The translations under genes and the position numbers were made by a program. DNA of 64,000 bases from Nocardia sputorum (GTDB taxonomy: Bacteria; Actinomycetota; Actinomycetes; Mycobacteriales; Mycobacteriaceae), in NCBI RefSeq assembly GCF_027924405.1, contig NZ_AP026978.1, forward strand, positions 3,472,001 through 3,536,000, written 5' to 3'. The notes under the pieces were generated by a model. It had not been told where the DNA came from and made no database searches. It saw only the letters and a list, made by a program, of their open reading frames with translations. Within the stretch, counting starts at the first letter, position 1, and every line of letters begins with the position of its first letter. Positions 1 through 26,136 of the stretch are shown here, one piece after another.

Positions 1-141
1 CCACCCGCATTCCGCAAGAGGAGCTTCATGCTGCCGAGAACGGTTCCCAGCACATCGACGGAGCCCGCGCCGCGGATCGTGGTGCCGATGACGACGAGCG
101 CCCCCGCACCGTCGTTCCTCCGTGTGGAGCCGCTGGTATGA
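1..141 (+). CDS. 3' end of an upstream gene, probably another PKS subunit
   Basis: The frame is open from base 1 and ends at TGA 139-141, which overlaps the ATG of the large polyketide synthase (ATGA). Only the last 46 residues are visible. They are rich in Pro, Ser, Thr and Ala, like an inter-domain linker or flexible tail, and match no domain I can name. Because the next protein starts in mid-module with a dehydratase, this gene would be expected to encode the missing ketosynthase of that module. That is inference from the split-module logic of trans-AT systems; the visible residues do not prove it. Translational coupling through the overlap supports one operon. Confidence 0.55.
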   Translation, partial: PPAFRKRSFMLPRTVPSTSTEPAPRIVVPMTTSAPAPSFLRVEPLV

Positions 142-3100
142 GCGGGATCGACCTGAACAGCTTCGCCACCACCCTGCGGGCCGAGGACCCGGTGGTGCGC
201 GACCACCGGGTGCACGGTGTACGGATCCTGCCGGGCGTGGTGTATCTCGACATGATCCTGCGCGCGGCGATGGCCGCCGGTTACCAGCCCGGCGACCTGA
301 CGATCCGGGAAGCGTTGTTCCAGCGTCCGGTCGCCCTCGCCGACGACGGCGCGGCACGCATCGCGTTCCGGGTCGATCGCCCGACCGGCCGGATCGCCAT
401 CGACGTACAGCGTTTGGATGCCGCGGGCGTGCCGGTCGGGGCGGTCGAGCCGGTAGCGGAATGCGTTGTCCAGCAGACGGAATCAGCGGACGAGCCGCAA
501 GGAATCGATGTCACCGGATTCCGTGCGGCGCTGGCGCGCGGTATCGCCGAGATGTATGCCCAAAGCGGGAGCCGGGGTATCGAGCATCGCGCGTTCATGC
601 GCGCCACCGGGCATTTCGCCCGCCGAGACGACGTGGTCACCGCGACGCTGGGTCTCGGCACCGAGGCGGCCGCGCATCTCCCCGGTTTCCTGCTGCATCC
701 CACCTTCTTGGACGCCTCCACGATCGTGCCGTTCATCGACCCGCACCGGCTCGGCGTGGACGACGACAGCGCGTTCATCCCGATCTATTTCGGTGACGTG
801 CGCGCCTGGCGGGCCACTCCTGAGGAGGTCTTCGTGCGGGCCTCGCTGCGCGGTGGGCACGGTGGGGATCTGCTCGAAGCCGAGGTGGCGCTCTACGATC
901 CGGACGGGTCACCGGTGGCGCGGTATCGGCTGACGTCCAAGCGTGTGCGTGGCAGCGCCGACATCCAGCGGTTGCTGACCCAGCCGGAGGCGGCGTCCCC
1001 GCAGCGACCGGCCGCGCCCACCGCTGCGTCCGCGGCCGTCCCTCTGGGCGACGCGCGTGCGGTGATCACCGCCGACTTGGCCGCGCTCGTCGCGGGCGAA
1101 CTCGGCGCCGAGCCCGCAGGCATCGCGACGGACGTGGGGTTCTACGAGCTCGGCTTGGATTCCGGTCGCCTGCTGCGGTTGACCGCGGAGCTGGAGGCGC
1201 GGGTCGGTGAGCCGCTCTACCCGACGTTGTTGTTCGAGTACCAGACCATCGAGGCGCTCGCCGGGCACCTCTCCGAGATCGTCGGCGCGAACTACCGGCC
1301 CGGTGACACCGCCGTCCCCTCGGCAACGCCTGTTCGAATAGATGCTCACCCAACTGAATCAGTTCCGAACGCAACACAATCGAGTACCAGCGCCAAGACA
1401 TCGGAAGCAGTCGCCACGCCGGTGGTATCCGCCTCGGTCCCAGCCGTGGACGACCTGATCGCCTTCGGATTCGACTGGGAGCCCGACCCCGCCGCGCACC
1501 CACGTCGCGAACCGGCCGCTTTGCTCGTCTTCGATACCGCTGACCACCCTTACCCGCACGGCGCGGCCACGGCCGTCCGCGTTCGCCCCGGCAACGAGTT
1601 CGTGGCGGGAACAGACCGGTTCGACGTCGACCCGGCGAACCCAGAACACATGGAGCGGCTGGTCGCTCAACTGGCGTCGCGGCGAGTGCGCTTCGACGCC
1701 GCGTTGTATCTGTGGCCCGAAGCGGTGACCGACACCGACCCGCAAGGCTTGATCGAACGGGTGTACCTGCCGCTGCGTGATCTGCTGCGTGCCGCCGCGG
1801 CGGCGCCCGAACCGCCGATGCGCCGGATACTCGCTCTCACGCCCGCCACACCCGCAGGTGAATCGACCTGCGCGCTCCTGGGCGGTTTGGCGCGCACCCT
1901 GCGGCTCGAGCAGCCACAACCGATCCTGCGGGCCGTCCAGCGCGAGCCCGGCGGTGCGATCGAGGACATCGTGGCCACCGAACTCGGCGTCGACGAACGC
2001 GACTCAGCCACCGAGATCCGCTATCTCGGCGGGCGACGCCAGATCCGCCGGTCCCGGCTGCTCGCCGACACCACGCCGAGTTCCGGCGACGCGGTGCCGC
2101 GCCCGGGGTCGGTTGTCGTGATCACCGGCGGATTCGGCGGAATCGGCCGGCAGCTGGCCCGCCGCCTCGCCACCGAGTGCGGCGCCCGGATGGTGCTGGT
2201 ATCGCGCCGCCCGCTCGACGCGGCGGCCGCCGCGCTGCTCGCCGAACTCGGCCATCTCGGCGCGGAAGCGGTGCACGTGCGCGCCGACGTGTCGGTCGCC
2301 GCGGATGCCGACCGCGTCGCCGCGATCGCCCACGCCACGTTCGGACCCGTCGAGGTGCTGTATCACGGTGCGGGACAACTGCGCGACGGACTGTTGGCGG
2401 GCACCGGCCGTGACGACGCGATATCCGTGCTGGCGCCGAAGGTCTACGGCGTCACGCATTTGACGCGGGCGCTGCCGGAGGTCCGCCTGACGGTGTTGTT
2501 CTCGTCGGTCTCCGCAGTGCTGGGCAACCCCGGGCAAGCGGATTACGCGGCGGCCAACCGCTATCTGGACGTCTTCGCCGAACAGCGCGATCAGTCCGGA
2601 AGCAGAACCATCAGTGTGGGCTGGCCGCTGTGGGCCGAGGGCGGCATGCGTCCACCCGCCGAACAGATCGCCGCGCTGCGGCGGGCCGGTGTGGGACTGC
2701 TGCCGACCGCGACCGGCCTGGACCTGCTGGTGTCCTGTGCCACGCTGAACCGCGCGCACTTGGCCACGGTGTGGGGTGAGCCCGAGGCGCTGCGCGCGCG
2801 ACTGCAACCGGCAGCCGCACGGCCGACCGCCGCCGTCATCGAGCCCTCGCCGGCTGCACATCGCCGGTCCGTCGCGGAGCCCATCGCGATCGTCGGGATC
2901 AGCGGTCGCTACCCGGACGCGGAGGACATCGAGGAGTTCTGGCGGAATCTGCGCGACGGACACGACGCGGTCGGTCCCGTCCCCGCCGAACGCTGGTGGC
3001 TCACCGCCGCCGGGGACGCGCCCGGCGCGCCCCCGATGATCGGCGGATTCCTCCGTGACGTAGGCGGTTTCGACCCGCAGTTCTTCCGCATCCCGCCCGT

Positions 3101-6100
3101 CCAGGCGCCGCTGCTGGACCCCCAGGAGCGGCTGTTCCTGCAGCAGGCGTACGCGGCGCTGGAGCACGCAGGCTACCACCACACCGATCCGGCCGTGCGG
3201 GATCGCCGCGTCGGCGTGTTCGTGGGCTCCACCTGGAGCGACTACCGATTGCTCGGGGTCGCGGCCGCCCGCGAGGGCGATCCGGTCGCGGTGGCCTCGA
3301 TCCCGTCGTCCATCGCCAACCGCACCTCCTACACCCTCGGGCTGCGCGGGCCCAGCCTCACCGTGGACACCGCCTGCTCGGCGTCGCTGACCGCGCTGCA
3401 TCTGGCGCGGCGCAGCCTGCTCGACGGCGAATGCGACGCGGCGCTGGTGGGCGGGGTGAATCTGCTGCTGCACGAGGACAAATTCCGGCTGCTGCACAGC
3501 TTGGGCATGATGTCCGACACCGGACGGTGCCGGCCCTTCGCCGCCGCGGCCGACGGTTACGTGCCCGGCGAAGGAGTCGGCGCCTTGTATCTGAAACCGC
3601 TGTCGGCCGCCCGCGCCGACGGCGACACCATCCACGGACTGATTCTCGGCAGCGCGGTCAACCACGGTGGCCAGACCTCCGGATACAGCGTGCCGCACCC
3701 GGGCGCGCAGGCCGAGGTGATCGGTGAGGCCCTGCGCGCGGCCGGGGTCGACCCCACCGCGATCGACTACCTCGAGGCGCACGGCACGGGGACCCCGCTC
3801 GGCGACCCCATCGAAATCGCGGGGCTCGCTGCCGCTTTCGGGAGGTCCCCCGGAGCCGGGCACTCCCGCGCTCTGGGGTCGACGAAGTCGAACATCGGCC
3901 ACTTGGAAGCGGCCGCCGGTGTCGCGGGCCTGACCCGGGTGCTGTTGCAGATGCGTCACGGCCGGATCGCGCCGACGCTGCACGCCGAACAGGCAAATCC
4001 GGCCATCGCGTTCAATTCGGTGCCGTTCCGCCTGCCGCGCGAAGTGCAGGAGTGGCCGCGCCGCACCATCGACGGCGTCGCCGTGGCGCGTCACGCCGGC
4101 ATCAGCGCGTTCGGCGCGGGCGGCGCCAACGCCCATGTGGTGCTGGCCGAATACCTCGACGACCGCGTTCGCCCGGCCGCCACGGGTGAACCGGAGATCT
4201 TCGTGCTGTCGGCGCGCACTCCCGAGCGACTGCGCCGCTACGCCGAGACCATGGCCCGGCACTTCCGCACCCTCGATCCCGCGGATTTCCGCGACGCCGT
4301 GCGCACCTTGCAGGTGGGCAGGCCCGCGCTCGCGCATCGTCTGGCGGTCGTCGCGTCCGCACCCGCCGAGGTGGCCGACGCGCTCGACCAGTTCCGCACC
4401 GACCAGCTCGGTCCCGTGGTGACCGGCACCGTCGACGCGCAGACCCGGCCGACGCTCTCCGCGCCCACGTCCGACGACCAGGAGCTGGCCCGCCGGTGGG
4501 TCGCCGGCGCGGAGTTCGACTGGCGTGGGCGCGGCGGGCCGCTGCGCCGGATCCCGTTGCCCGGCTATCCCTTCGAGCGCACCGATTACTGGATCATCGC
4601 ACCACCGCGCTCGGGGTTCGACGCCGCGGTGCAGCGGTTCGAGGCGGCCGTCGAGCCCGCGGGCGTCGTGGAGCCCGGCAAGGCCGAACTCGGCCGCTAC
4701 GCGGCGATGCGGCTGTTCGCCACGCTCGCCGGCATGGGACTCACGCCGGGGGAGTGGACCGCGCGGTCGGTGGACGCGCGCCTGGGCATACGACCCGAGT
4801 TCGACCGGCTGCGCACCAGCTGCCTGGACATCCTGCGGCGACACGAGCTGGTGCGCTCGCAGGACGGCCGGATCGTGGTTCCCGGCCCGCCACCCGGGAC
4901 CGGCGGGATGCGCGCCGACCTGCTCGCGCGCTTCCCGGAAACTCAGCCGTATGTGACATTGCTGGACGCCTGCCTGGCCGCGTATCCGCGCGTCCTACGC
5001 GGCGAGCTGTCCGCGACGGAGGTGCTGTTCCCCGGCGGCGACCTCGAACTGGTGGGCGCGATCTACCGTGGCAACGCAGCTTACGATTTCACCAACGGCT
5101 TGCTCGCCGGGTTGGTGTCGGCGGTAGCGCAGCCGCCGGGCCCGGCGCGGCCGCTGCGCATCATCGAAATCGGCGCGGGCACCGGCGGTTCCACGCACGC
5201 GGTACTCGACGCGCTCACCGAGCGCGCGATCGCGTTCGACTACCACTACACCGACGTGTCGCACAGTTTCGTCGCGCACGGACGACGCACCTTCGGTACG
5301 CGCGAGAACCTGCGTTTCACGGTGCTGGACATCGAAGCCGATCCGGTCGCGCAGGGATTCCCCGCGCATGAGGCCGACCTGGTGCTCTGCGCCAACGTCC
5401 TGCACGCGACGCGGTCGATCGGCACGACGCTGCGCAACGTCCGGCGGCTGCTGGCGCCCGGCGGCGTGCTCGCGTGCACGGAGGCGACCACCGACCTCGA
5501 GGTCCTCGCGCTGACCTTCGGGCTGCTGGAGGGCTGGCACGCCTACCGCGATCCGGAGGCGCGGCTTCCGCACTCGCCGTTGCTGTCCGAGTCCCAATGG
5601 AACACAGCGCTGGCCGCAGCGGGTTTCACCGGGATCCGCTCGTGGGGGCCCGGCCTGTCCACGGATCCGGAGCCGAGTTTCCGGCTGCTGGCCGCCGTCA
5701 GCGCCTCCGTGCCCGCCGTCGCGCAGTCTCAGCCGACGGTTGCCGCCGCCGCGAAGCTCCAGCCCGCGGCCGCCGCCGAATTGCACGTCGAGCCTGGGCT
5801 CGTCTCCGGTGCGCAGTCCCAGCCGACAGTCGCCGCCGATCCGCAGGTCCAACCCACGGTCGCCGCCGAATTGCAGGTCCAGCCCACGGCTGTCTCCGGT
5901 GCGCAGTCTCAGCCGACAGTCGCCGTCGATCCGCAGGTCCACCCCGCGCTCGCCGTGGAGTCGGCCCCCGTCGCGCCGCTCCACCCAGCAGACGCCGCCC
6001 GACCAGCGGCCGAGACGCGGACCGAACCCACGGTGGTGACCGTACTTTCACAGCCCGGCACTGCCCAGGCGCTCGAGGCCGAGCTCACCGCCATAGTCGC

Positions 6101-9100
6101 TGACGGACTCGGCGTGGCACGCAGCGAGGTGCGGGTGGATTTGTCGCTTTCGGAGTACGGGGTCGACTCCATACTCGCGGTGAAGATCATCGACCGGGTC
6201 AACGCCCGGTACGGCCTGGCGCTACGCCCGACGGTGGTGTTCGACCATCCGTCGGTACGGCTGCTCAGCGCTCGCCTGGCCCAAGAGGGCGCCGAGGCGA
6301 CGAGCGCATCCGGGGCACCAGCGCGCGCCCGGACAGCGCCCGTCTCGAACCTGCCGACGCCCGGCACCCGAACCGCCGCCGAGCGGCCCAGCGAGAGGTC
6401 GGCATCGATGGACGTCGCCATCATCGGCATGTCCGGGCAGTTCCCGGGCGCGGCGAACCTCGACGAGTTCTGGCGCAATCTCGCCGCCGGGCACGACGCG
6501 GTGACCGAGATCCCCGCGACGCGCTGGCCGATCGCCGATCACTTCCGGCCGGCGCCGGCCACACCGGGCAAGACCTACTCCAAGTGGGGCGGCTTCCTCG
6601 ACGGCGTCGAGCAGTTCGATCCGGCGTTCTTCGACCTGGTGCCCGCCGAAGCCGACTACATGGACCCGCAGCAGCGGTTGTTCCTGGAACACAGCTGGCT
6701 GGCCCTGGAAGACGCCGCCATCGACCCGAAGTCGTTGCGGCGCAGCCGGTGCGGTGTGTTCGCCGGGTCGCCGGGGTCGGACTACGCCACCCTGCTGCGC
6801 AACAGTGGAACGGTCGGGTCTCATCACCTGTTCACCGGCAACAGCCCGGCCATCCTGCCCGCCCGGGTGGCGTATCACCTGGATTTGACCGGTCCGTGTC
6901 TCGGGTTGGACACCGCGTGTTCCTCCGCGCTGGTCGCGCTGCACCAAGCCTGCCGCAGCCTCGCTTCGGGCGAGTCGGAACTCGCGCTGGCCGGTGGTGT
7001 CGCGGTGTTCGTGACGCCCGAATACCACCTGCTCGCCTCGTCGATGGGCATGCTGTCGCCGCGCGGGCGGTGCGCGAGCTTCGACGCCGACGCCGACGGT
7101 TTCGTGATCGCCGAGGGCGTCGGTGTGGTCGTGCTCAAGCCGCTGGCCGCCGCCGAACGCGACGGCGACCCGATCCACGGGGTGATCCGCGGGATCGGCG
7201 TCAATCACGACGGCCGCACCAATGGCATCACCGCGCCGAGTGTGCGCTCGCAAACCGAGCTGGAGCTGGCGGTATATCGCGACGGCGGGATCGATCCGTC
7301 CACCATCGGCTACGTCGAAACGCACGGCACGGGGACGCGTTTGGGCGATCCGATCGAAATCGAAGCGCTCACCGCCGCCTTCCGCCGCTACACCGGCGCG
7401 GTCGGCGCCATCCCGGTGGGATCGGTGAAATCCAATATCGGGCACGCCTCGCACGCCGCGGGCATGGCGAGTCTGTTCAAGGTGCTGCTGGCGATGCGCG
7501 CCCGACAGTTGCCGCCGTCGCTGCACGTCGCCGCGGTGAACCCGCTGCTCGGGCTGGCTGATTCACCGTTCTTCGTCAACACCGAACTGCGCGCATGGGA
7601 CGGTTCACCCCGGCGAGCCGCGATCAGTTCCTTCGGATTCAGCGGCACCAACGCGCACCTGGTGGTCGACGACGCTCCGGCCGTGGCAGCCGCCGGGCCT
7701 GCCGCGCCGGGCGCACCGCAGGTCATCGTGCTCTCCGCGCGCAGTACGACCAGCTTGGCCCGGATGGCGCGCTCGCTGCGCAGGTATCTGTCCGCGCATC
7801 CGGATGCGGTGCTCGCGGATGTCGCGCGCACGCTGGCGTTCGGGCGCAGCGGCTTCGAGCATCGCCTCGCGGTGGTCGCGGACACGGTGGACGCCGTCGC
7901 GGCCCGGCTCGCCGCCTTCGCCGAGGGTGATCGGCCCGCCGGGGTCTTCACCGGCACGATCGACGCCCCCGCCGAGCGAACCGGAGCCACTGTGCTGAAC
8001 GACCCGGCAGCGGCGGCACAGGCGTGGGTCGAAGGGGTTCAGGTCGAATACGCGGGCTGGACCGATCCCTCCGCGCGCCGTATTCACCTGCCCGGGTATG
8101 AGTTCGACCGGGAAAGGTGCTGGGCGCCGGAGGTGGGTGCGTCTTCGTCCACGCGGCCGGCTGCGGTCGGGCGCTCGCGGCAAGGGGTCTCCCAACCGGC
8201 CGACAGCGAAGCCCCGGGCCTCGCCGCGATGCGTGCAACGAGCCCGTCGACCGGCGCGGCACCGCGAAAGCTGCGGGCGTCCGACAGCGCCGAGGGAATG
8301 CTTCCCGCCCCGCCCATGGCCGAGCCGGTTCTCGATAACATCTCGGCACCCTCGGAGATTGCCGACAATACACTCGCGACGGCTGCTCCGCCCCACGACA
8401 GCGTGCTCCGCAACGAAGCCGACCACGCGGCTCACGGATTCACGCCTGATGCCGGATCCACCTCGCCGGGTTCCCTGCCTTTGCGGCAGTCCGCCGAGAC
8501 CTACCTCAAAGGTCTGCTCGCCGAATACTGCCGACTCGGCCCGCAACGGATCCGCACCCGTATTCCGTTGCAGGACTATGGCATCGACTCGGTCCTCATC
8601 AGCAAGATGAACGACCGGCTGGAAACCGATTTCGGCCCGCTGCCCAGCACCCTGTTCTTCGAATACCAGACCGTCCGCGACCTCGCGGGCTATCTCGCCG
8701 ACGAGCACGCGCCGCGCCTGGCCGCGCTCACCGATTCGAAGCCGGAGACGACCTCATCCGGCGACGTCGTCGCACCCGCGCACACGGCGGCCTCCACCTC
8801 CGCGCCCGACAGCGCGGACGACGCCGAGGACATCGCCGTCATCGGCATGGCGGGCAAGTTCCCGATGGCGGGGGACATCGACGAGTTCTGGGCCAACTTG
8901 GTCGCCGGCCGCGACTGCATCGTCGAGGTCCCACCGCAACGCTGGGACCACCGCGAATACCTCTCCGACGACCCGGACGAACCCGGCACCACCTACGCGC
9001 GCTGGGGCGGATTCCTCGGCGACGTGGACAAGTTCGACGCCCGCTTCTTCGGCATCACCCCCAAGGACGCCGAGGAGATGGACCCGCAGCAACGGCTGTT

Positions 9101-16214: not shown

Positions 16215-16244
16215 AATACCGGCGGCGACCGAAAGATAGGTATT
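16215..16244. promoter_or_regulatory. Inverted repeat in divergent promoter region
   Basis: AATACC (16215-16220) and GGTATT (16239-16244) form six-base inverted arms 18 bp apart. They lie in the 86-bp gap between the divergent GT2 and GDP-mannose dehydratase genes. The site is placed to control both directions. No cognate regulator can be named from the sequence. Confidence 0.35.
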
Positions 16245-16287
16245 GCCCGCTTTTTTGCGACCCGATAGTCTCGGGGTTGGAGGTTTG

Positions 16288-17310
16288 ATGAGAAAGGCGC
16301 TGATAACCGGCATCACGGGCCAGGACGGGTCTTATCTGACGGAATTCCTGTTGCAGCAAGGATATGAGGTGCACGGGATTATCCGGCGTGCCTCGAATTT
16401 CAATACCGATCGGATAGACCACCTGTATTCCGATACGCATTCCCAACGCCGGCTGTTTCTGCATTACGGGGATCTCATGGATTCCAGCAGTCTCAACCGG
16501 ATCCTGGAGGACGTGCGGCCGGCCGAGATCTACAACCTGGGCGCGCAGTCGCACGTGCACATCTCGTTCCAGATCCCGGAGTTCACCGCGGAGACCAACG
16601 CGATCGGCACGCTGCGCATCCTGGACGCGATCCGCAAGACCGGCATCGCGACCCGGTTCTACCAGGCCTCGTCCTCCGAGCTGTACGGCGGGCTGCACGA
16701 CGTGGCGCTGAGCGAGCAGACACCGTTCCATCCGCGCTCGCCGTACGCCGTGGCGAAGCTGTACGCGTACTGGATCACGGTGAACCACCGCGAGGCCTAC
16801 GGCATGTACACGGTCAACGGCACCCTGTTCAACCACGAATCACCCCGGCGCGGAGAGGTTTTCGTGACCCGCAAGGTGACTCGCGGCGCGGTGCGCATCG
16901 CGCAGGGCAAACAGGACAAGCTCTATATCGGCAACCTGGACGCCCGCCGGGACTGGGGATACGCCAAGGAGTACGTCGAAGCGATGTGGCTCATGCTGCA
17001 ACAGGCCGAACCCGACGATTACGTCATCGCCACCGGCGAGACACACAGCGTGCGTGAGCTGTGCGAGACCGCCTTCTCGGCCACCGGTGTCGAATTGGTC
17101 TGGGAAGGAACAGGTTTGGCGGAGAAGGGGATCGACCGGCGGACGTCGCGGGTGCTGGTCGAGGTCGATCCGACCTATTTCCGGCCCGCCGAGGTGCATC
17201 ATCTCACCGGTGATCCGAGCAAGGCGCGCGAGAAGCTCGGATGGGAACCCCGTACGAGTTTCACCGAACTGGTCGAGTTGATGGTCGCCCACGATATGGA
17301 GAACGCGTGA
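16288..17310 (+). CDS. gmd: GDP-mannose 4,6-dehydratase
   Basis: A 340-residue extended SDR that converts GDP-D-mannose to GDP-4-keto-6-deoxy-D-mannose. Family marks are the [11 protein letters not shown] nucleotide loop at the N-terminus, the active site SSSELYG (the usual Thr is Ser; the catalytic Glu is kept), YAVAK with the catalytic Tyr and Lys, and the diagnostic [10 protein letters not shown] and [11 protein letters not shown] blocks. The length matches the family. The start at 16288 has GGAGG about five bases upstream. It overlaps the next gene (GTGA). In this cluster it is the entry point from primary metabolism to the deoxysugar; no dTDP-glucose genes are present. Confidence 0.95.
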
Positions 17311-18560
17311 CGCAAGCAGTGGCGGTGCAGGCCTGCCGGGTGTGCGGGAACACCCGGCTCGAGTCGGTGGTCGATCTCGGCACCATGGCGTTGACCGGGG
17401 TGTTCCCGGCCACCGATCCGACCGAGGTGCCGCGCTACCCGTTGGAGTTGGTGCGCTGCGTGCCCGAGAGCAGCGCGGAGTGCGGGCTGGTGCAGTTGCG
17501 CCACACGGCCGATTTCGACGAAATGTATTCCCCCGGCTACGGATACCGCTCCGGGCTGAACCGCTCGATGATCGACCACCTCGCCCACCGGGTGGCCCGC
17601 ATCCGGCAGCGGGTGCCGTTGTCGCCGCAGGATCTGGTGATCGACATCGGCAGCAACGACGCGACGCTGCTGCGCGCCTACCCCGAAGGGTCGGCGACGA
17701 TTCTGGGCATCGACCCGCTGGGGGAGAAGTTCCGCCGGTTCTATCCGCCGCACGTGCGGCTGGTGACCGGCTACTTCACCCGCGAACTGGCCGAATCGGT
17801 GCTGGAGGGGCGACGGGCCAAGGTGATCACCTCGATCGCCATGTTCTACGACGTGCCGAATCCGCTGGAATTCATGGGCGCGGTGTACGACAGTCTCACC
17901 GACGACGGCGTCTGGGTGCTCGAGCAGAGCTATCTGCCCGCGATGCTGGCCACCACCTCCTACGACACGATCTGTCACGAGCACTTGGAGTACTACGCCC
18001 TCGACCAGATCGAGTGGATGGCGCGGCGGTGCGGATTCGTGGTGCTCGAGGTGGAACGCAATGCCGTCAACGGCGGCAGCTTCGCGCTCACGCTGGGCAA
18101 GCGAGGGGTCGCGTCGGCTGCCGATGCCGCGGTGCTGGACCGGATGCGGCAGGAGGAGTCCGCGCTCGGGCTGCACACCTCCCAGCCATACGCCGACTTC
18201 GCCAAACGGGTCGACCAGCACCGCGAGCAGGTGCGCGATTTCTTCGACCGCTCCCGCAAGGCCGGTCTGCGCACGCTCGGTTACGGCGCCTCCACCAAAG
18301 GCAACGTGGTGCTGCAGCACTGCGGGATCGGCCCGGAGGACCTGCCGTGCATCGCGGAGGTCAACGACGACAAGTTCGGCAAGTTCACCCCGGGCAGCGC
18401 GATCCCGATCGTCTCCGAGACACAGGCGCGGGAGCTGGCGCCCGACCAGTTCTTCGTGCTGCCCTGGCATTTCCGAACCATGATGCTGGAGCGGGAGAGC
18501 GCCTTCCGCGCGGCGGGCGGGCGGCTGGTGTTCCCGCTGCCGGAACTGGACGTGGTGTGA
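17307..18560 (+). CDS. Sugar C-methyltransferase (TylCIII/NovU type)
   Basis: A 417-residue SAM-dependent methyltransferase with the three-part layout of deoxysugar C-methyltransferases. An N-terminal zinc-binding region has CRVCGN and a second Cys pair around residues 50-60. A central SAM fold carries [10 protein letters not shown]. The C-terminal domain contains [18 protein letters not shown] is the family block near the active site. These enzymes methylate carbon next to the keto group of an NDP-4-keto sugar, giving branched sugars. GTG 17307 overlaps the preceding stop. The implied substrate here is a GDP-linked ketosugar, whereas the characterised relatives use dTDP-sugars. Confidence 0.9.
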
Positions 18561-18561: not shown

Positions 18562-19509
18562 ATGACCGTCGTCGTCACGGGCGCGGCCGGGCAGGACGGC
18601 ACGCTGCTGTCGGACCTGCTCGCCGCGCGCGGCGAACGTGTGCTGCGGATCGGCCGCGCCGGCCCCGTCGACATCACCGACGCGGCCGCGGTCGAGGAAC
18701 TGATCGCCACCGAACGCCCCGCGCAGGTGTACCTGCTGGCGGCGGTGCAGCACTCCTCGCAGGACGACCACGGCGACCCGCGCGAACTGGCCCGCGCCTC
18801 GCACCGGGTGAACACGCTGCCGGTGCACCACTTCGCGGAGGCGATCGACCGGCACCGCACCGGCACCCGGCTGTTCTACGCGGCCTCGTCGCATATCTTC
18901 GGCTCCGACGCCGCCGCGGTGTGCGACGAGCGCAGCGGGCTGCGACCGGACTCGATCTACGGCGTGACCAAGGCGGCGGGCCTGCTGACCTGCCGCGCCT
19001 ACCGCGCCCGGGGCGTCTTCGCGGCGGCGGGGATCATGTTCAACCACGAATCGCCCTTGCGCGCGGAGAAGTTCGTCACCCGCAAGATCGTGCGCGCCGT
19101 CGCCCGGATCCAGCGCGGCGAGACCGGCACGGTGGAGGTGGGCAAGGTGGACGCGGGCGCCGACTGGGGATACGCACCGGACTACGTCGAGGCGATGACA
19201 CGGATCCTGGCCCTCGACGAGCCGGACGACTTCGTCGTCGCCACCGGCGAACACCACACGGTCGCGCAGTTCTGCGCGGCGGCGTTCGGCATGGCCGGAC
19301 TGGACTGGAACGACCATGTCCGCGAACGTTCCTCGGTGCTCACCCGCGGCAGGCAACCGCTGGCGGGCGACGCGACGAGGCTGCGCGAGCGGACCGGGTG
19401 GCGTCCTTCGGTGGATTTCCACGGCATGGTGCGCGCCATGCTCGTCGCCGAGGGCGTGCGCCTGGTGGAGGAATCGAGGCCGGTGCGCACCGGCGGAACG
19501 GATGGATGA
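18562..19509 (+). CDS. GDP-mannose-dehydratase-like reductase/epimerase with altered active site
   Basis: A 315-residue paralogue of the gene at 16288. It keeps the TGAAGQDG loop, YGVTK (Tyr/Lys), and the FNHESPLRAEKFVTRK and DWGYAPDYVEAM blocks that mark the GMD branch. The active-site string is SSHIFG where the dehydratase has SSELYG, so the acid Glu needed for C5/C6 dehydration is replaced by His. It is therefore unlikely to be a 4,6-dehydratase and more likely reduces or epimerises the 4-keto sugar after C-methylation. It starts two bases after the C-methyltransferase stop and overlaps the next gene by 8 bp. Confidence 0.85.
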   Translation: MTVVVTGAAGQDGTLLSDLLAARGERVLRIGRAGPVDITDAAAVEELIATERPAQVYLLAAVQHSSQDDHGDPRELARASHRVNTLPVHHFAEAIDRHRTGTRLFYAASSHIFGSDAAAVCDERSGLRPDSIYGVTKAAGLLTCRAYRARGVFAAAGIMFNHESPLRAEKFVTRKIVRAVARIQRGETGTVEVGKVDAGADWGYAPDYVEAMTRILALDEPDDFVVATGEHHTVAQFCAAAFGMAGLDWNDHVRERSSVLTRGRQPLAGDATRLRERTGWRPSVDFHGMVRAMLVAEGVRLVEESRPVRTGGTDG

Positions 19510-20695
19510 CGTGACCTTGAACGACGAGAATGTCCTCGCCGCCCACTTGATCTCCGTCGCCGACGGCGTCTACGAGGAGACCGCCGCGCGGATCGGCGAG
19601 ATCGGCACCGAGACCGTCGCCGACGCGGTGCTGAAAGAGATCGCCTGGCGTGCGAACTACGGACCCCGGCCCGGACAACCGGTGACGGCGGTATTCGAGC
19701 TGACCCACGAGGGCAAGCAGCTGGACTACCTGCTCACCGTCGGCGCCGACGACCCCGCCGTCGCTCCCGGCACGCTGGAGGATCCGTGGCTGGTGGTGCG
19801 GCAGGATCTGGTGGAACTGCTGCGCGCGGTCTACGGCCCGCCCGACGCCGCGCTCGGCACGCGCGCCATCGCGATCAAGGACGAGCCGGGGCCGGGCAGT
19901 TTCGCCCCGGACGATCCGTGGCGGCTGGCCCGCGACGCCGCGGCGGTCGCCGCCGACCGTATCGTCACCGCCTGCCGCCCGCACCACTACGACCTCAACG
20001 CGCTGTCGCTGCACTTCGGTTCGGACAAGTGGGGCGGGCACTGGTACACCCAGCACTACGAGCGCCACTTCGCACCCCTGCGCGACAGCCGCGTGCGCGT
20101 CCTCGAACTGGGCATCGGCGGATACACCGCGCCCGATGTCGGCGGCGCCTCACTGCGGATGTGGAAGCAGTACTTCCGCCGGGGCCTGATCTTCGGGCTG
20201 GACTTCTTCGACAAGTCCGGCATCGCCGAGCCGCGCTTGCAACCGCTGCGCGGCGATCAGGGCGATCCGGCGTTCCTCGACGGGCTCGGCAGCTCGCTCG
20301 GCCCGTTCGACATCATCATCGACGACGGCAGTCACATCAGCGGTGACGTCATCGCCTCGTTCCAGGCGCTGTTCGCGCACCTGCGGCCGGGCGGGCTGTA
20401 CGTGGTGGAGGACACCCAGACCTCCTACTGGTCGGGCTGGGGCGGCAGCAGCACCGCCACCAACGATCCGGCCACCACCATCGGCTACCTGAAAACCCTG
20501 GTAGACGGTCTGCACCAACAGGAATTCGAGAAGGAATCCGGCCGCGTGGCAGGCGCTTTCGACGACTGGATCGGGGCGCTGCACTTCTACCACAACATCG
20601 TGGTGATCGAAAAACGCCGCAATGCCGAGCAATCGGCTCCATCATGGGTGCCTCGGCACACCAATCCGATGGAGTGGATGAAGCCGAAGGAGTGA
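19502..20695 (+). CDS. MycE-like sugar O-methyltransferase
   Basis: A 397-residue protein with an N-terminal helical domain (about 1-160) and a C-terminal SAM fold. HFGSDKWGGHWYTQHYE, LELGIGGY, MWKQYF, GLDFFDKS, DDGSH and EDTQTSYW together match MycE, the metal-dependent enzyme that methylates a sugar hydroxyl on the macrolide mycinamicin. The length equals that of MycE. The Asp pair and His of DDGSH are the expected metal/catalytic residues. ATG 19502 overlaps the preceding gene by 8 bp; GTG 19511 is an alternative start. It probably O-methylates the sugar after or during its transfer to the polyketide. Confidence 0.9.
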   Translation: MDDVTLNDENVLAAHLISVADGVYEETAARIGEIGTETVADAVLKEIAWRANYGPRPGQPVTAVFELTHEGKQLDYLLTVGADDPAVAPGTLEDPWLVVRQDLVELLRAVYGPPDAALGTRAIAIKDEPGPGSFAPDDPWRLARDAAAVAADRIVTACRPHHYDLNALSLHFGSDKWGGHWYTQHYERHFAPLRDSRVRVLELGIGGYTAPDVGGASLRMWKQYFRRGLIFGLDFFDKSGIAEPRLQPLRGDQGDPAFLDGLGSSLGPFDIIIDDGSHISGDVIASFQALFAHLRPGGLYVVEDTQTSYWSGWGGSSTATNDPATTIGYLKTLVDGLHQQEFEKESGRVAGAFDDWIGALHFYHNIVVIEKRRNAEQSAPSWVPRHTNPMEWMKPKE

Positions 20696-20699
20696 TCGG

Positions 20700-21878
20700 A
20701 TGAAGTTTCTTGTCGTGCCGGTGCCCTCGTCGGGTCACCTGCTGGCGATGGTGCCGTTCTGCTGGGCGCTGCGGCTGGCCGGCCACGAAGTGCTGGTCGC
20801 CTCGCGCAACGACGTGACGGCCACGGCGCTGCGCTCCGGCCTCAACGCCGTCGAGCTGACCGCGCTGAACGTGCCGATGGACCAGTTGCGCACCCAGGTT
20901 AATCCGGGCATGTTCCCGCTTCCGCTGTTCGCCGACCGCGATCAGTCCAGCGGACAGGGCCTGTGGCAGGTCGCCGCGCAGAACTGGCACAACCATGCCC
21001 GCCGATACCTCGAGACGTTCGCGGAGGTGGCCACCGACTGGCAAGCCGACGTCGTCCTGACCGATCCGCTGGCCACCGTCGGCCGTGCGCTCGGCGCCGA
21101 ACTGGATCTGCCGGTCCTGGTGCACCGCTGGGGAATCGACCCCACCGGCGGGCCCTTCACCGAACGCACCGCAGCGCTCGCCGCCGAGGCGGGCACGCGG
21201 CTGGCCGATCCGGTGGCGGTGCTCGACATCTGCCCGCCGAGGTTGCAGGCGCCCGACGCCGTGCCGGGCACGCCGCTGGGTTACGTACCGTTCAACGGCA
21301 CCGGCGCGTTGCCGACGTGGCACCGCGCCGAGCGGGGCCGCAAGCGGATCGCGGTCTGTATGGGCGGCAGCACGCTGGGCCTGACCGGGCCGCGGCCACT
21401 GGAGTCGGTGCTCGCGGCGCTCGGCGACATCGACGACGCCGAGGTGGTCGTCGCGCTGTCGGCGCCCGACCGGGCCACGGTCGGTGAATTGCCCGGCCAT
21501 GTGCGGGTCGTGGAAGAGGTTCCGCTGAACCTGTTCCTGCCCGGCTGCGATCTGCTGGTGCACCACGGTGGCTCGACCACCGGCCTCACCGCGGGGTGGT
21601 TCGGGTTGCCGCAACTGGTGCTGCCCCAGATGTTCGACCAGTTCGACTACGCCCGCGGCCTGGTGCGCAGCGGGGCCGGGCTGGCCGCCGAGACGCCCAC
21701 CGGTCAAGGCGACATCCAAGCGCTGACCGCCTCGATCCGCGCGCTGCTGCGCGAACCCCGCTACCGCGCCGCCGCCGAGCAGATCGGCGCCGACCTGCGT
21801 GCCGCACCCGCCCCGGGCGAGGTGGTGGCGCAGGTCGTTCCGCTGCTGGCCGAGCACACCGCAGCAGCGACCAGATAG
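20700..21878 (+). CDS. GT1 family glycosyltransferase (macrolide type)
   Basis: A 392-residue GT-B enzyme. The N-terminal half opens with VVPVPSSGHLLAMVP, the acceptor-domain signature with the GH dyad used by antibiotic glycosyltransferases. The C-terminal half has the nucleotide-sugar motif HHGGSTTG followed by GLPQLVLPQMFDQFDYA. It should transfer the NDP-deoxysugar made by the adjacent genes to the polyketide in the cytoplasm. It begins four bases after the O-methyltransferase stop. No P450-like activator partner of the DesVIII/EryCII kind is adjacent. Confidence 0.93.
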   Translation: MKFLVVPVPSSGHLLAMVPFCWALRLAGHEVLVASRNDVTATALRSGLNAVELTALNVPMDQLRTQVNPGMFPLPLFADRDQSSGQGLWQVAAQNWHNHARRYLETFAEVATDWQADVVLTDPLATVGRALGAELDLPVLVHRWGIDPTGGPFTERTAALAAEAGTRLADPVAVLDICPPRLQAPDAVPGTPLGYVPFNGTGALPTWHRAERGRKRIAVCMGGSTLGLTGPRPLESVLAALGDIDDAEVVVALSAPDRATVGELPGHVRVVEEVPLNLFLPGCDLLVHHGGSTTGLTAGWFGLPQLVLPQMFDQFDYARGLVRSGAGLAAETPTGQGDIQALTASIRALLREPRYRAAAEQIGADLRAAPAPGEVVAQVVPLLAEHTAAATR

Positions 21879-21932
21879 ACCGTCCGCGCGGCCCGAACCG
21901 GGCGACGCGGGAACCGAAAGCCGTAGGTGCAG

Positions 21933-23501
21933 ATGATATCCAGGACATGGACCCGGTTCCGGGGTTCACTCGACTACTTCGCCGCGATGTACGCGGTGTT
22001 CGTCGTCGGCATTCTCGTCCCCGTCGTGATGATCGCGCTCTCGCTCACCGGCCTACCGGGGCCGGTGACCGCGGTGCTCGGTATCGCGTGCGCGGCGGTG
22101 TTGTTCGTGCTGTTCGTGCCGACCGTGCCCGAGGAGTGGCGGCAGGTGATGCGCGGCAAACCGATCGTGGTGCGGGTGCTGTGGAGCGTGGTGATCCTGC
22201 TCGTGGTCGCGGTGCTGGCCCGGCTGACGCAGTTCATCCTCGACGCCGACAACGTGGACGCCTCGCTGTCGGCCGACGACGACTTCCTGGTCAAGAAGAC
22301 CCACCTGTCCGGATACGTCAGCGGCGCGCTCATGGCCGAACACGACCCGGCCGGTCTCTACGACCGTCACCGCTACGAATCGCCCCAGGCGGATTCGGTG
22401 CTGCCCGCGGTGACCCCGCAGGATCGCGACGCCTACCTCTACCCGCCGCCGTTCCTGCTGCTGCCGCGGTTGCTGCTGCTGTTCAGCCACGATTTCGCGA
22501 CGCTGCGCGCGCTGTACTACTCGCTGTACGTGGCGATCGTGCTGGTGGCCATGTTCGCCATCGCCCGCTGGATCGGCGGCAGGCAGGGCGGAGTGCTGGC
22601 GGCGCTGACCCCGGTCGTGTGGCTCAGCCTGCCGACGCTTGCGACCTTGCAGATCGGCAATATCCACGTGCTGGTGCTGTACGTCGGTGGCGCGGGGGCC
22701 ATGGTCCTGTTCCAGCTGCGGCGCAACATCTTCGGCGGCGCGGCGCTTGCATTTGCGATCATCGCCAAGGTGTCCCCGGCGATCCTGCTCGTCTATCTGC
22801 TGGTCCAGCGACGGTGGCGGCCCGCGGTGTGGACCGCGGTGTTCGGTGGGCTGTATTCGCTGGCCACGCTGGCGATCTTCGGCTGGGAGCCGTGGCGGCA
22901 GTTCCTGTCCGACGGCACCTGGCAGCGGCTGGCCAGCGGGGAATTCCACCAGTTCGTGCTGGTGGAACGGGCCAACCAGCTGGTCAACTATTCGCCGTTC
23001 GGGCTGCCGTACAAAGCGAACATCATGGGCTGGGACATCGGCGACCCCGTCGGCCCCGCCCGCGTGATCACCAACGTCTACACCTTGCTGCTGCTGATTC
23101 TGGTGGCCGTCACGGCGATCCGCATCCACCGGCGGCTGTCCGCCGGGGCCGAGGGCCCTCGGGTTCGCGCGGAGCAGCTGGCCATCTGGCTGGCGGTGCT
23201 GACGCTGGCGTCGTTCCGCGCCCCGTTCGGGCCGTGGGTGTACATCGCCGTCGGCGCGGTGTGGATGCTGGCGGTGTACGCCGGGCTGATGCGCGGCGGC
23301 AAACGCACCGTCGCCCTGCTCACCGTGGCCTGGCTGATCATCGCGGTCTACAACGAGAACGTCTACTTCACGCTCGTGGCGCAAACGGTCATCTACGTCG
23401 CCTGCTTCGTTGTGGCCTGGCGGGCGAGCGCGGGCACCGAGCCGGAACCCGCGCCGCCGCAGGAAGACACTCCCCGAACCGAACGGGTCGGCGCGGCATG
23501 A
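21933..23501 (+). CDS. Membrane glycosyltransferase, GT87 family (polyprenyl-phosphate-sugar dependent)
   Basis: A 522-residue integral membrane protein with about ten hydrophobic segments. It has a long loop after the first helices carrying acidic residues ([14 protein letters not shown]) and [11 protein letters not shown], typical of the GT87/DUF2029 family. Members such as the mycobacterial arabinofuranosyl- and mannosyltransferases use polyprenyl-phosphate sugars on the outer membrane face. ATG 21933 has AGG five bases upstream; GTG 21927 is an alternative. The gene overlaps the flavin monooxygenase (ATGA), so it is co-expressed with tailoring enzymes. Together with the GT2 enzyme at 15443 it suggests a second, extracytoplasmic sugar addition, analogous to the lipid-mannose-dependent step known in ramoplanin and related antibiotics. 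Confidence 0.85.
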
Positions 23502-24775
23502 GCACCTATTGCGTGATCGGCGCGGGCGCGGCCGGTTTGGCCACCGCACGCGAGTTCGCCGCGGCGGGTTTGGATTTCGAGGTGCTCGAAGCGGCCGACG
23601 GGATCGGCGGGATCTGGGACGCCCGACGGCCCGATTCACCGGTCAGCCGCAATACCCACGTGATCGCTTCCAAAGGGGTGCAAGCGTTCTCGGGTTTTCC
23701 GATGCCCGAGGACTATCCCGACTATCCCGGGCACGAACTGGTGCTGCGCTATCTGCACTCCTACGCCGACGCCTTCGATCTGTGGCCGCGTATCCGGTTG
23801 AACACCGCGGTGCGACGCGTCGAGCCGGGCGCGGACGGCTGGTCGGTGACGCTGGCCGACGGGTCGGAGCGACGCTACGCGGGTGTCGTCATCGCCACCG
23901 GGCACGACCGTACGCCGCGTCGCGTCGACATCCCCGGCTCGGGCACGGTGCCCGTGCTGCATTCGAGCGAGTACCGCACGCCCGAACAGGTGCTCGGCAA
24001 GCGGGTGCTGGTGATCGGGGCCGGGCAGTCGGCGGCCGACATCCTGTCCGACTGCGCGGTCAATGCCGCGCTGACCCTGCACAGCAGCAGGCGCGGGTTC
24101 TATTGCATGCCCAAGTACATGCTGGGCCGCCCGACCGACAGCATGCTCCAAGGCCGGATGTGGCGGCCGCTGCGCAAGCGGGCCTTCGAGCGGCTGTTCT
24201 CCTACCTGCGCGGCCGCTCCCGCTCGTTCGGGCTTCCGGTGCCCGATTTCGGTGCGGGCATCGTCATCCCGATGCTCGGCGACCAGCTGCACCATCACTA
24301 CACCCACGGCGACATCACGCCCAAACCGGATGTCACCGCGATCGACGACGACCGGGTGACCTTCGCCGACGGCACCGAGGAGAAGGTCGACCTGGTGGTG
24401 CTGGCGACGGGGTTCGTGCCGAACTATCCCGTCGTCGACCGGGCCGAGCTGAACTGGCCGGAGGGCAGCTTGCGACCGGGCTTGTATCTGAACATCTTCC
24501 CGCCGCACCCTCGGAACCTTTTCGTGGTCGGGATGGTGCGCCCGATCGGCTCGCACTGGGACGTCTACGAGAAACAAGCCGGACTGGTCGCCGAGTACCT
24601 GCGCGCCAAGGCGAGCGATCCCCGCCGGGTCGAGCGTTTCGATCGCGCCGCCCGGGGCCCCCAGCCCGACCTGTATGCCGGGCTGCGGCTCTATCACGCC
24701 GACCAGTACCCGCTGGTGGTGGAGAAACAGGACTACGTGAACCAGCTGCGCAAGCACTCCAAGCTCTTGAAGTGA
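23498..24775 (+). CDS. Flavin-containing monooxygenase
   Basis: A 425-residue class B flavoprotein monooxygenase. The FAD motif GAGAAGLA is at the N-terminus, the NADPH motif VIGAGQSAADI at about 170-180, HSSEY just before it, and LATGF, the late FMO signature, near 305. It should oxygenate a heteroatom or carry out a Baeyer-Villiger reaction on the polyketide. It begins inside the stop of the GT87 gene and ends 11 bp before the P450. The extended BVMO fingerprint is not clearly present, so the reaction type stays open. Confidence 0.9.
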   Translation: MSTYCVIGAGAAGLATAREFAAAGLDFEVLEAADGIGGIWDARRPDSPVSRNTHVIASKGVQAFSGFPMPEDYPDYPGHELVLRYLHSYADAFDLWPRIRLNTAVRRVEPGADGWSVTLADGSERRYAGVVIATGHDRTPRRVDIPGSGTVPVLHSSEYRTPEQVLGKRVLVIGAGQSAADILSDCAVNAALTLHSSRRGFYCMPKYMLGRPTDSMLQGRMWRPLRKRAFERLFSYLRGRSRSFGLPVPDFGAGIVIPMLGDQLHHHYTHGDITPKPDVTAIDDDRVTFADGTEEKVDLVVLATGFVPNYPVVDRAELNWPEGSLRPGLYLNIFPPHPRNLFVVGMVRPIGSHWDVYEKQAGLVAEYLRAKASDPRRVERFDRAARGPQPDLYAGLRLYHADQYPLVVEKQDYVNQLRKHSKLLK

Positions 24776-24786
24776 AAGGTCGGACC

Positions 24787-26136
24787 ATGAAAGCACCCGG
24801 GCCCGGTCTGGTGGAAACCGGACGCATGCTCCCGAAACTGGCGAAGAACCCGCTGACTACGGTGGGCGCGCTGCTGGACGGCTACGGCGACGTCGTGCGG
24901 GTCAAGGCGGGCCCGATGCTGGTCTACCTCGTCGCGGACCCGGCGATGACCGAGTACGTCCTCAAGGACAACTACACCAACTACCGCAAGAGCCCGATCT
25001 ACGACGAGTTCAGCATCCTGCTCGGCGACGGGCAGCTGACCACCAACAACCTGGAGTACTGGCGTAAACAGCGCAAACTCATCTCCCCGGCGTTCTCCCA
25101 CTCGCACGTCAAGGGTTTCGCCGACGACATCACCGACAGCGCCGCGGCGATGCTCGACGACTGGGACGCCGCGTCCGGGCAGTTCCGCGACATCTACGAC
25201 GACTTCGTCAAGCTGCTGCTCGCGGTGACCGGCCGCATCCTGTTCAGCATCGACCTGTCCACCGGCACCACCCAGGTGACCGACGCGATGCGCGCGGCGT
25301 TCGCGTTTATCATGAAGCGGGTGAACGCGCCGGTGAAACTGCCGCAGTCGTTCCCGACCCCGGAGGCGCGCCGGGTCGCGCGCAAGGTGGGCGAACTCGA
25401 CGAGGTGGTGCGCCATCTCATCGATGAACGCCGCCGCGGCGGCGACACCACCGATGTGCTCACCGCGCTGGTGCGCGCCCGCGACGAAGGTGGGCAGGGC
25501 ATGCGCGAGGAGGACCTGCTCAACGAGATCAAGACCTTGCTCGTGGCCGGGCACGAGTCCCCGGCCAACGCGCTGTCGTGGGCCTGCTACCTGCTGGCCA
25601 CCCATCCCGAGATCCAGGAGAAACTGGCCGAGGAGGTGCGGACCGTACTCGGCGACCGCACCCCGTCCTTCGCGGATCTGGGACAGCTGAGCTATTGCCG
25701 CATGGTGATCGAGGAGACGATGCGGCTGTACCCGCCCGCGTGGATCGTCGAGCGCACGCCCATCGCCGATGACGAGATCGGCGGCTACCACGTGCCGGCG
25801 GGCGCGCGAGTCACGTTGTGCATGTACTACATCCACCGCGACAAGCGGCTGTGGGAGGACCCGGAGGAATTCCGTCCCGAGCGTTTCGCCGACGCCGCGG
25901 TGGCCGAGCGGCACAAGTTCGCGTTCTTCCCGTTTTCCGGCGGCCCGCGCATCTGCCTGGGCAAGGACATGTCCATGACGGAAATGGTGCTGATCCTCGC
26001 CATGACGGTGCAGCGGTTCCGGCTCGAACTCGACGCCACCCACCCGGTGGTGCCGCTGGCGTCGGTGAACCTGCGCCCGGAGTTCGGCATCCGCATCCGC
26101 CCGGTCCGCCGCGTCACCGAACCCGCGACGACCTGA
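24787..26136 (+). CDS. Cytochrome P450
   Basis: A 449-residue P450. The heme-ligand loop is FSGGPRICLG near residue 385 and the K-helix ExxR is EETMR. The I-helix reads AGHES where most family members have AGHET, a Thr-to-Ser change at the oxygen-activation position, followed by Pro. The loop form and overall length resemble CYP102/CYP110-like, fatty-acid-type P450s rather than the short macrolide hydroxylases. It lies 11 bp after the monooxygenase and is probably the last gene of the operon. No ferredoxin or reductase gene is adjacent. Confidence 0.94.
   Translation: MKAPGPGLVETGRMLPKLAKNPLTTVGALLDGYGDVVRVKAGPMLVYLVADPAMTEYVLKDNYTNYRKSPIYDEFSILLGDGQLTTNNLEYWRKQRKLISPAFSHSHVKGFADDITDSAAAMLDDWDAASGQFRDIYDDFVKLLLAVTGRILFSIDLSTGTTQVTDAMRAAFAFIMKRVNAPVKLPQSFPTPEARRVARKVGELDEVVRHLIDERRRGGDTTDVLTALVRARDEGGQGMREEDLLNEIKTLLVAGHESPANALSWACYLLATHPEIQEKLAEEVRTVLGDRTPSFADLGQLSYCRMVIEETMRLYPPAWIVERTPIADDEIGGYHVPAGARVTLCMYYIHRDKRLWEDPEEFRPERFADAAVAERHKFAFFPFSGGPRICLGKDMSMTEMVLILAMTVQRFRLELDATHPVVPLASVNLRPEFGIRIRPVRRVTEPATT

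What the first reader, a model, noticed from the sequence alone, without database searches (positions are those of the whole stretch)
1..26136. Apparently complete right end of a trans-AT polyketide cluster in a Nocardia-like genome
Seen: a 4064-residue synthase with three KS and four ACP domains, no AT, each KS followed by an AT-docking-type tail, and a free AT next to it. Known: trans-AT systems are rarer in actinobacteria than cis-AT systems. The domain order DH-ACP-KR-KS-MT-ACP-KS-ACP-KS-ACP-R, with this sugar set, matches no cluster I can name.
Basis: partly seen in the sequence, partly recalled or inferred. Interest (0 to 1): 0.8.

Follow-up and report, generated by a model that had tools for sequence, protein, structure and literature searches.

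The report
NOCAP polyketide cluster in a Nocardia
The enzyme assembly line seen at the left edge of this Nocardia window is almost certainly one more copy of the already studied nocardiosis-associated polyketide (NOCAP) synthase, although its gene layout shows a natural fusion of two normally separate kinds of polyketide assembly line.

Summary
The domains are there as described: a 4064-aa synthase (138-12332) ordered DH-ACP-KR-KS-MT-ACP-KS-ACP-KS-ACP-R with no AT. Two things were missed. The neighbouring "free AT" is an AT-thioesterase fusion. The line continues on both sides: a 7184-aa synthase ends at window position 141 (five KS, AT only in modules 1 and 3), and a conserved KS-ACP protein lies at 33000-35561 (minus strand). 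Nine KS, a split module, a C-methyltransferase and reductive release fit the NOCAP synthase, which held papers call nonamodular, trans-AT and conserved among pathogenic Nocardia. The primary NOCAP papers were not held, so structural details are recalled and identity with the published proteins was not measured. The tailoring block recurs gene for gene in 8 of 8 relatives with enough flank; 12 of 12 assemblies read have the same synthase pair. KS trees put modules 1-3 on the cis-AT side and modules 4-8 on the trans-AT side: a cis/trans chimera with module 2 AT-less. The second synthase's full domain order also occurs in myxobacteria, at least once beside an AT-PfaD instead of an AT-TE. Verdict: known cluster; a few evolutionary features are worth following.

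The parts
1..141 (+). 3' end of the upstream 7184-aa hybrid synthase PKS-A (G000:C1:3450587-3472141; KS1-AT-DH-KR-ACP / KS2-DH-ER-KR-ACP / KS3-AT-DH-KR-ACP / KS4-KR-ACP / KS5)
138..12332 (+). PKS-B, 4064 aa: second half of split module 5 plus modules 6-8 and reductive release
162..926 (+). DH of split module 5
   Evidence: HxxxGxxxxP in 12 of 12, but the second motif reads DASTI without Q/H
1080..1277 (+). ACP of module 5
2112..2639 (+). KR of module 5
2862..4148 (+). KS6 (trans-AT side of tree)
5142..5633 (+). C-methyltransferase of module 6
6069..6272 (+). ACP6
6393..7670 (+). KS7 (trans-AT side)
8505..8687 (+). ACP7
8811..10091 (+). KS8 (trans-AT side)
10842..11039 (+). ACP8
11166..12287 (+). 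terminal thioester reductase (TIGR01746, 220.5 bits against cut-off 213.35; YxxxK in 12 of 12)
12329..14203 (+). AT-thioesterase fusion, 624 aa: discrete AT plus RifR-like type II TE
14220..14636 (+). 138-aa cupin-like protein (weak, under the Pfam cut-offs), 93-100% identical in relatives
14671..15465 (+). NAD-dependent epimerase/reductase-like protein
15443..16201 (-). GT2, closest solved relative dolichol-phosphate mannose synthase; candidate polyprenyl-phosphate sugar synthase
16243..17310 (+). GDP-mannose 4,6-dehydratase
   Evidence: TIGR01472, 556.4 bits against cut-off 415
17241..18560 (+). sugar C-methyltransferase (D-mycarose 3-C-methyltransferase / TcaB9 type)
18562..19509 (+). GMD-like sugar dehydrogenase/reductase, exact activity unknown
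19316..20695 (+). MycE-type sugar O-methyltransferase (true start probably nearer 19500, inferred)
20700..21878 (+). GT1 glycosyltransferase, closest solved relatives annotated NDP-rhamnosyltransferase
21927..23501 (+). GT87 membrane glycosyltransferase, 11 hydrophobic segments in a simple hydropathy scan
23498..24775 (+). flavin monooxygenase (FMO-like)
24772..26136 (+). cytochrome P450
33000..35561 (-). PKS-C: stand-alone KS-(AT-docking)-ACP with conserved C-terminal docking-like tail; proposed loading/first module (true start probably about 35402, inferred)

Best explanation
This is the right part of a NOCAP-type (nocardiosis-associated polyketide) cluster. Proposed order: PKS-C (KS-ACP) primes with an acetyl unit and docks to PKS-A. 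Modules 1-3 build a triene (modules 1 and 3 with their own ATs; module 2 AT-less with a probably dead ER). Module 4 (KR only) leaves a hydroxyl. Module 5, split between PKS-A (KS5) and PKS-B (DH-ACP-KR), iterates to make the second triene. Modules 6-8 (C-methylation, no reduction) build the resorcylic ring, and the thioester reductase releases an aldehyde. AT-TE loads malonyl onto AT-less modules and its type II TE edits stalled chains. Sugar enzymes, FMO and P450 then decorate the aglycone. Shown by sequence: the domains, their order, the AT pattern, the KS clades and the conservation. Inferred: direction C to A, iteration, ER inactivity, TE editing, tailoring. Structurally PKS-A is a cis-AT front fused to a trans-AT back in one polypeptide.
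For: Domains and motifs. Nine KS in three proteins against 'nonamodular' in PMC10394414 (passages). Trans-AT with programmed iteration in PMC10921412 (passages). [quoted passage not shown] abscessus, arthritidis, asiatica, beijingensis, exalbida and others. Dimer mass 2.69 MDa computed for the four proteins against '3 MDa' in the published title. Carbon count (my arithmetic): C2 starter + modules 1-3 (C6) + module 4 (C2) + module 5 three times (C6) + modules 6-8 (C6) = C22, equal to the recalled NOCAP aglycone (15-carbon tail + C6 ring + CHO), with the hydroxyl between two trienes at KR-only module 4. PKS-A/B pair with the same KS/AT pattern in 12 of 12 assemblies read; 34 of 34 listed PKS-A-like proteins that carry an AT have exactly 5 KS and 2 AT. 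Tailoring genes and PKS-C present in 8 of 8 relatives with enough flank. KS split with SH-aLRT 99.5 after dropping rows as told.
Against: The primary NOCAP papers and accession were not held, so product structure and module map are recalled and identity with the published proteins was not measured. An ER domain in module 2 is not expected from an all-triene product; it must be inactive or unused. The DHs are not all textbook: the Gly of HxxxGxxxxP is replaced in DH1 in 10 of 12 sequences and in DH3 in 10 of 12, and DH5 reads DASTI where a Q or H is usual (motif meaning recalled), so dehydration at these steps is not assured by sequence. The starter role of PKS-C is inferred; its KS keeps Cys rather than the KSQ Gln, moving it to the trans side is not rejected (p-AU 0.29), and 5 of 18 genome matches to it hold a stop codon (not examined, possibly in the N-terminal extension before the proposed start). 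Iteration of module 5 cannot be read from sequence.
Confidence: 0.87

Rival explanations
1. The locus is an uncharacterised trans-AT cluster that merely resembles NOCAP and makes a different aglycone.
For: No direct comparison with the NOCAP accession was possible; module 2 carries an ER domain; DH1, DH3 and DH5 depart from the usual motifs.
Against: KS count, split module, KR-only module 4, MT, reductive release, carbon count and host species all fit; the locus is conserved across Nocardia species, several of them known as pathogens (papers).
Confidence: 0.08
2. PKS-C (33000-35561, -) is not the loading module but an accessory or in-trans module, and the first KS of PKS-A is primed another way.
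For: It lies 7 kb from the P450 on the other strand; its KS has an odd active site (NASCAGSL, Cys kept) and its ACP reads GIGS; its tree position is weakly fixed (p-AU 0.29); 5 of 18 genome matches hold a stop codon.
Against: It groups with three KSQ-type loading KS (SH-aLRT 96). A docking-like tail is recognisable in 9 of 9 orthologs, and the PKS-A N-terminus is conserved likewise. All 18 genomes with PKS-C at the cut-off are among the 21 with AT-TE, of 150. It supplies the ninth KS of a 'nonamodular' line.
Confidence: 0.25
3. AT-less module 2 is loaded by a neighbouring cis-AT (AT1 or AT3) rather than by AT-TE; AT-TE serves only modules 4-8.
For: KS2 is of cis-AT descent (moving it to the trans side p-AU 0.033), with AT-bearing modules on both sides.
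Against: A discrete AT is encoded next to PKS-B; the post-KS linker of module 2 is under constraint (mean identity 0.73, omega 0.20).
Confidence: 0.3

Closest known systems
NOCAP (nocardiosis-associated polyketide) synthase, Kuo 2016 and Yuet 2020 (primary papers not held; known here through passages in PMC11762266, PMC10394414, PMC10921412, PMC11907408, PMC13254586)
   Same: Genus, nine KS, AT-less modules with discrete AT, mass near 3 MDa; recalled: split stuttering module, SAM-dependent methylation, reductive release, resorcylaldehyde with two trienes and one hydroxyl
   Different: No difference could be tested; not comparable at sequence level here
Myxobacterial homologs of PKS-B (P0160 and P0161 Pyxidicoccus, P0168 Myxococcales MAG)
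   Same: Same complete domain order DH-ACP-KR-KS-MT-ACP-KS-ACP-KS-ACP-R; KS8 72-73%, R 66-68% identical
   Different: In P. parkwayensis the related AT is an AT-PfaD fusion on a contig of the same length (13,211,353), not AT-TE; the proteins upstream were not seen
Short form in Kitasatospora, Micromonospora, Dactylosporangium (P0170, P0172, P0175)
   Same: DH and KS-MT-ACP-KS-ACP-KS-ACP-R
   Different: ACP5 and KR5 not found; some relatives (P0171, P0174) list a fused AT in their Pfam column
Hybrid cis/trans-AT lines such as kirromycin or enacyloxin (recalled)
   Same: Mix of AT-bearing and AT-less modules
   Different: Not compared here

Membership tests
NOCAP synthase | nonamodular assembly line (PMC10394414) | tested here: met
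   5 + 3 + 1 KS; counting PKS-C as the ninth module is an inference
NOCAP synthase | trans-AT, programmed module iteration (PMC10921412) | tested here: inconclusive
   AT-less modules and discrete AT met; iteration not readable from sequence
[quoted passage not shown]
   21 of 150 Nocardia genomes carry AT-TE at E<=1e-100
NOCAP synthase | about 3 MDa | tested here: met
   2.69 MDa for the dimer of the four proteins
NOCAP synthase | split module, C-methyltransferase, terminal reductive release (recalled) | tested here: met
   domains present; that these define NOCAP is recalled
NOCAP synthase | sequence identity with the deposited NOCAP proteins | not testable with these tools
   primary papers and accession not held
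trans-AT PKS | KS modules without AT plus a discrete AT | tested here: met
   modules 2 and 4-8 and PKS-C
trans-AT PKS | KS in trans-AT clades | tested here: met
   KS4-KS8; moving KS4 to the cis side p-AU 0.0008. Not so for KS1-3
trans-AT PKS | no AT in the modules of the line as a whole | tested here: not met
   AT1 and AT3 in PKS-A: the line is a cis/trans hybrid
type II thioesterase | RifR-like alpha/beta hydrolase with Ser/Asp/His | tested here: met
   best TE matches are RifR chains; GHSLG, GRDD, GGHFF motifs

The most novel reading that the evidence does not exclude
PKS-A is a natural in-frame fusion of a three-module cis-AT front (whose middle module has lost its AT) to the back end of a trans-AT resorcylaldehyde line shared with myxobacteria; the trans-AT of that family exchanged its PfaD partner for an editing thioesterase in Nocardia. 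The finished molecule is further mannosylated outside the membrane by a GT2/GT87 pair, making NOCAP an envelope-associated glycolipid.
Probability: 0.3. Interest if true: 0.6.

Novelty: already known. Interest (0 to 1): 0.35.

Why it matters
As a discovery claim it does not stand: the assembly line is very probably the deorphanised NOCAP synthase. What remains useful is a clean natural case of cis-AT and trans-AT modules joined in one polypeptide, with an AT-less module of cis descent between two AT-bearing ones. PMC7930024 (passages) calls module-block swapping widespread in trans-AT lines and virtually unknown in cis-AT lines. The junction, the AT-less module and the partner exchange (AT-PfaD against AT-TE) are directly testable in vitro, because the NOCAP proteins have been reconstituted. 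Whether the NOCAP authors already described the chimera I could not see.

Tried and rejected
Rejected: a free-standing AT (it is AT-TE); a wholly trans-AT line; a KSQ loading domain in PKS-C (Cys kept in 9 of 9); the 138-aa protein as a membrane flippase (no hydrophobic segment, cupin-like). The idea that the post-KS tail is diagnostic of trans-AT was dropped because the same Pfam linker scores in AT-bearing module 3.

Led nowhere: PMC7413640 and PMC12153302 (finds) hold no 'nocardiosis-associated'; PMC4035055 was searched for other words only, and the listing shows 0 occurrences of the NOCAP name there. PMC11260071 mentions it only in its reference list. A search with an author name I misremembered found nothing relevant. 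The nine papers and the two were seen as listings there (PMC7930024 and PMC6164871 as passages). No structure prediction was run. No MIBiG or antiSMASH tool was on hand.

Rows dropped: of 63 KS domains found, 2 (KS beside an HMG-CoA synthase gene) were left out of the first tree (61 rows). Six more, all from the two Streptomyces trans-AT records, were left out of the second (55 rows): four trans references that lay on the cis side in the first tree, and a pair on a very long branch. The clean cis/trans split holds only after dropping them. The AU groups were named after the first tree was seen. Of the 14 relatives with a near full-length match, PKS-A/B were read in 11 (plus the window); exalbida, asiatica and pneumoniae were not fetched for that, and one search shows the PKS-A KS of exalbida and asiatica in shorter frames or on two contigs of those draft assemblies.
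Full report
Where it is. The window is bases 3472001-3536000 of a 7.43-Mb single-contig genome. The synthase named in the finding (PKS-B here) is at 138-12332. Its ATG overlaps the stop of a 7184-aa ORF (PKS-A) that starts 21.4 kb to the left and ends at window 141. Of ten ORFs scanned left of PKS-A none is a PKS; an imine-reductase-like gene and a GT87 are among them. I take PKS-A as the left edge of the line, but did not test the left flank in relatives.

The line. PKS-A reads KS1-AT-DH-KR-ACP / KS2-DH-ER-KR-ACP / KS3-AT-DH-KR-ACP / KS4-KR-ACP / KS5. PKS-B reads DH-ACP-KR (completing module 5) / KS6-MT-ACP / KS7-ACP / KS8-ACP-R. Both ATs of PKS-A carry an AFHS motif, which I recall as malonyl-type. 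The next gene is a 624-aa AT-thioesterase fusion; solved relatives of its AT include FabD, PksC/PksE and DisD, and of its TE the type II thioesterase RifR. A stand-alone KS-ACP protein (PKS-C) lies at 33000-35561 on the minus strand.

Conservation. In 8 of 8 relatives whose fetched flank reaches far enough, every gene from the 138-aa cupin-like protein to the P450 is present in the same order, and PKS-C follows downstream on the opposite strand (69-96% identical in the best piece). Four further relatives (niwae, exalbida, asiatica, pneumoniae) had short flanks and show the genes as far as the flank goes. PKS-A and PKS-B show KS x5 / AT x2 and KS x3 / AT x0 in 12 of 12 assemblies read, the window included. 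AT-TE is found in 21 of 150 Nocardia genomes at E<=1e-100, PKS-C in 18 of 150 at E<=1e-230, all 18 among the 21; 5 of the 18 PKS-C matches hold a stop codon, which I did not examine. N. paucivorans misses that cut-off but has a PKS-C. Median per-domain omega is 0.07-0.12 for KS, 0.14-0.19 for KR, 0.17-0.22 for AT, 0.21 for DH5, 0.31 for ER2, 0.33-0.38 for DH1-3 and 0.39-0.95 for linkers.

Cis or trans. KS domains were taken from the window genome and from named plasmid records as controls; an HMM search showed an AT behind each of the 24 cis references and behind none of the trans references. In the 55-row tree the 24 cis references with KS1-3 and PKS-C form one side of a branch against the 22 trans references with KS4-KS8, SH-aLRT 99.5. 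Moving KS4 to the cis side is rejected (p-AU 0.0008), moving KS2 to the trans side is rejected weakly (0.033), moving PKS-C is not rejected (0.29). Before the second tree six trans-record rows were dropped, four of which had lain on the cis side in the 61-row tree. KS5 groups at 100 with two B. velezensis KS that also lie near the end of their ORFs. So PKS-A is best read as a chimera with its joint between modules 3 and 4, and module 2 as an AT-less module of cis descent. Among the best 120 proteins matching the PKS-A back half (of 778), 34 carry an AT domain, each with exactly 5 KS and 2 AT, and those of the 34 with a source name are all Nocardia; the other 86 carry none.

What it makes. Held papers describe NOCAP as the product of a nonamodular PKS from Nocardia of nocardiosis patients, fully reconstituted (passages: PMC10394414; PMC11762266; PMC11907408), and as a trans-AT line with proposed programmed iteration (PMC10921412). 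From memory the aglycone is a substituted resorcylaldehyde with a 15-carbon tail bearing two trienes separated by a hydroxyl. The layout here gives that carbon count (C22) if PKS-C supplies acetyl and module 5 acts three times, with the hydroxyl from KR-only module 4. The ER of module 2 has D or E for the first Gly of the GGxG dinucleotide motif in 12 of 12 sequences (window ADGMG), while the four other ER motifs found in fetched loci of the same genome read GGVG or GGMG; this is consistent with an alkene at that position. Against an easy reading, DH1 and DH3 lack the Gly of HxxxGxxxxP in 10 of 12 sequences each and DH5 reads DASTI at its second motif; their catalytic His and Asp are kept in 12 of 12.

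Loading. The PKS-C KS clusters with three loading KS that bear Gln at the active site (SH-aLRT 96) but itself reads NASCAGSL, Cys kept, in 9 of 9 orthologs. Its C-terminal tail is recognisable in 9 of 9 (diverged in abscessus and paucivorans) while the linker before it is not conserved, and the N-terminus of PKS-A is conserved likewise. This suggests a docking pair. I take PKS-C as the loading module, with reserve.

Tailoring. GDP-mannose dehydratase, sugar C-methyltransferase, GMD-like protein, MycE-type O-methyltransferase and a GT1 (nearest solved relatives annotated NDP-rhamnosyltransferase) point to a branched, methylated 6-deoxyhexose from GDP-mannose. A GT2 nearest to dolichol-phosphate mannose synthase and a GT87 with 11 hydrophobic segments suggest a polyprenyl-phosphate sugar used outside the membrane, with a precedent in Ram29 of ramoplanin (PMC4635501, passages). 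FMO and P450 complete the block.

Wider family. PKS-B's full domain order recurs in all six long-form proteins compared from P0159-P0168 (two Pyxidicoccus, one Myxococcales MAG, three unnamed): KS7 67-70%, KS8 72-74%, R 62-70%. Without ACP5/KR5 it recurs in Kitasatospora, Micromonospora and Dactylosporangium. In three named cases the contig length shown for a PKS-B homolog equals that of an AT protein with PfaD-type Pfam domains (P0161/P0056, P0172/P0070, P0170/P0052). Of the 120 AT-TE homologs listed (of 759), 53 match the TE: the first 51, from Nocardia where named, and two distant ones; one Nocardia AT protein (P0053, strain NPDC020380) has no TE match. I found no paper on this wider family in one search (listing only), which is not evidence of absence.

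Verdict. Interest lies in the evolutionary joint, not in a new cluster. After rechecking, confidence was lowered slightly (0.88 to 0.87) for the DH motifs and the PKS-C stops.

Noticed in passing
window 26481-28119 (-): A Vat-family streptogramin acetyltransferase-like gene (244 bits, below the family cut-off 300) and a macrolide-glycosyltransferase-like ORF that ends before the last part of the family profile; no match at E<=1e-8 in the 8 relatives with enough flank.
   Followed up: partly
L042, L044, L045 (N. paucivorans PKS-A): The KR of module 1 is missing: DH1 runs into a linker and ACP1, so this species should make a different or differently processed chain.
   Followed up: partly
PKS-C, window 33000-35561: KS active site NASCAGSL in place of DTACSSSL (9 of 9 orthologs) and ACP motif GIGS in place of GxDS (8 of 9).
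   Followed up: partly
P0159-P0168, P0170-P0175: Complete and shortened homologs of PKS-B in myxobacteria and other actinobacteria, a cross-phylum family of C-methylated, reductively released lines.
   Followed up: partly
P0053, P0157, P0275 (Nocardia sp. NPDC020380): A divergent Nocardia member: PKS-A-like protein of 6175 aa with 5 KS and 2 AT, but its AT protein has no TE match.
   Followed up: no
G000:C1:3930001-3975500: A second, cis-AT modular PKS cluster with a Gln-type loading KS in the same genome.
   Followed up: no
H41, H42 (Azospirillum argentinense plasmids): A gene annotated fabD covers 80% of AT-TE at 37-38% identity in two pieces, possibly another AT-TE fusion.
   Followed up: no
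window 28906-32257: AraC regulator, quinone-oxidoreductase-like gene and Ser/Thr kinase between P450 and PKS-C vary between relatives; AraC and oxidoreductase matched in 2 of 8.
   Followed up: no
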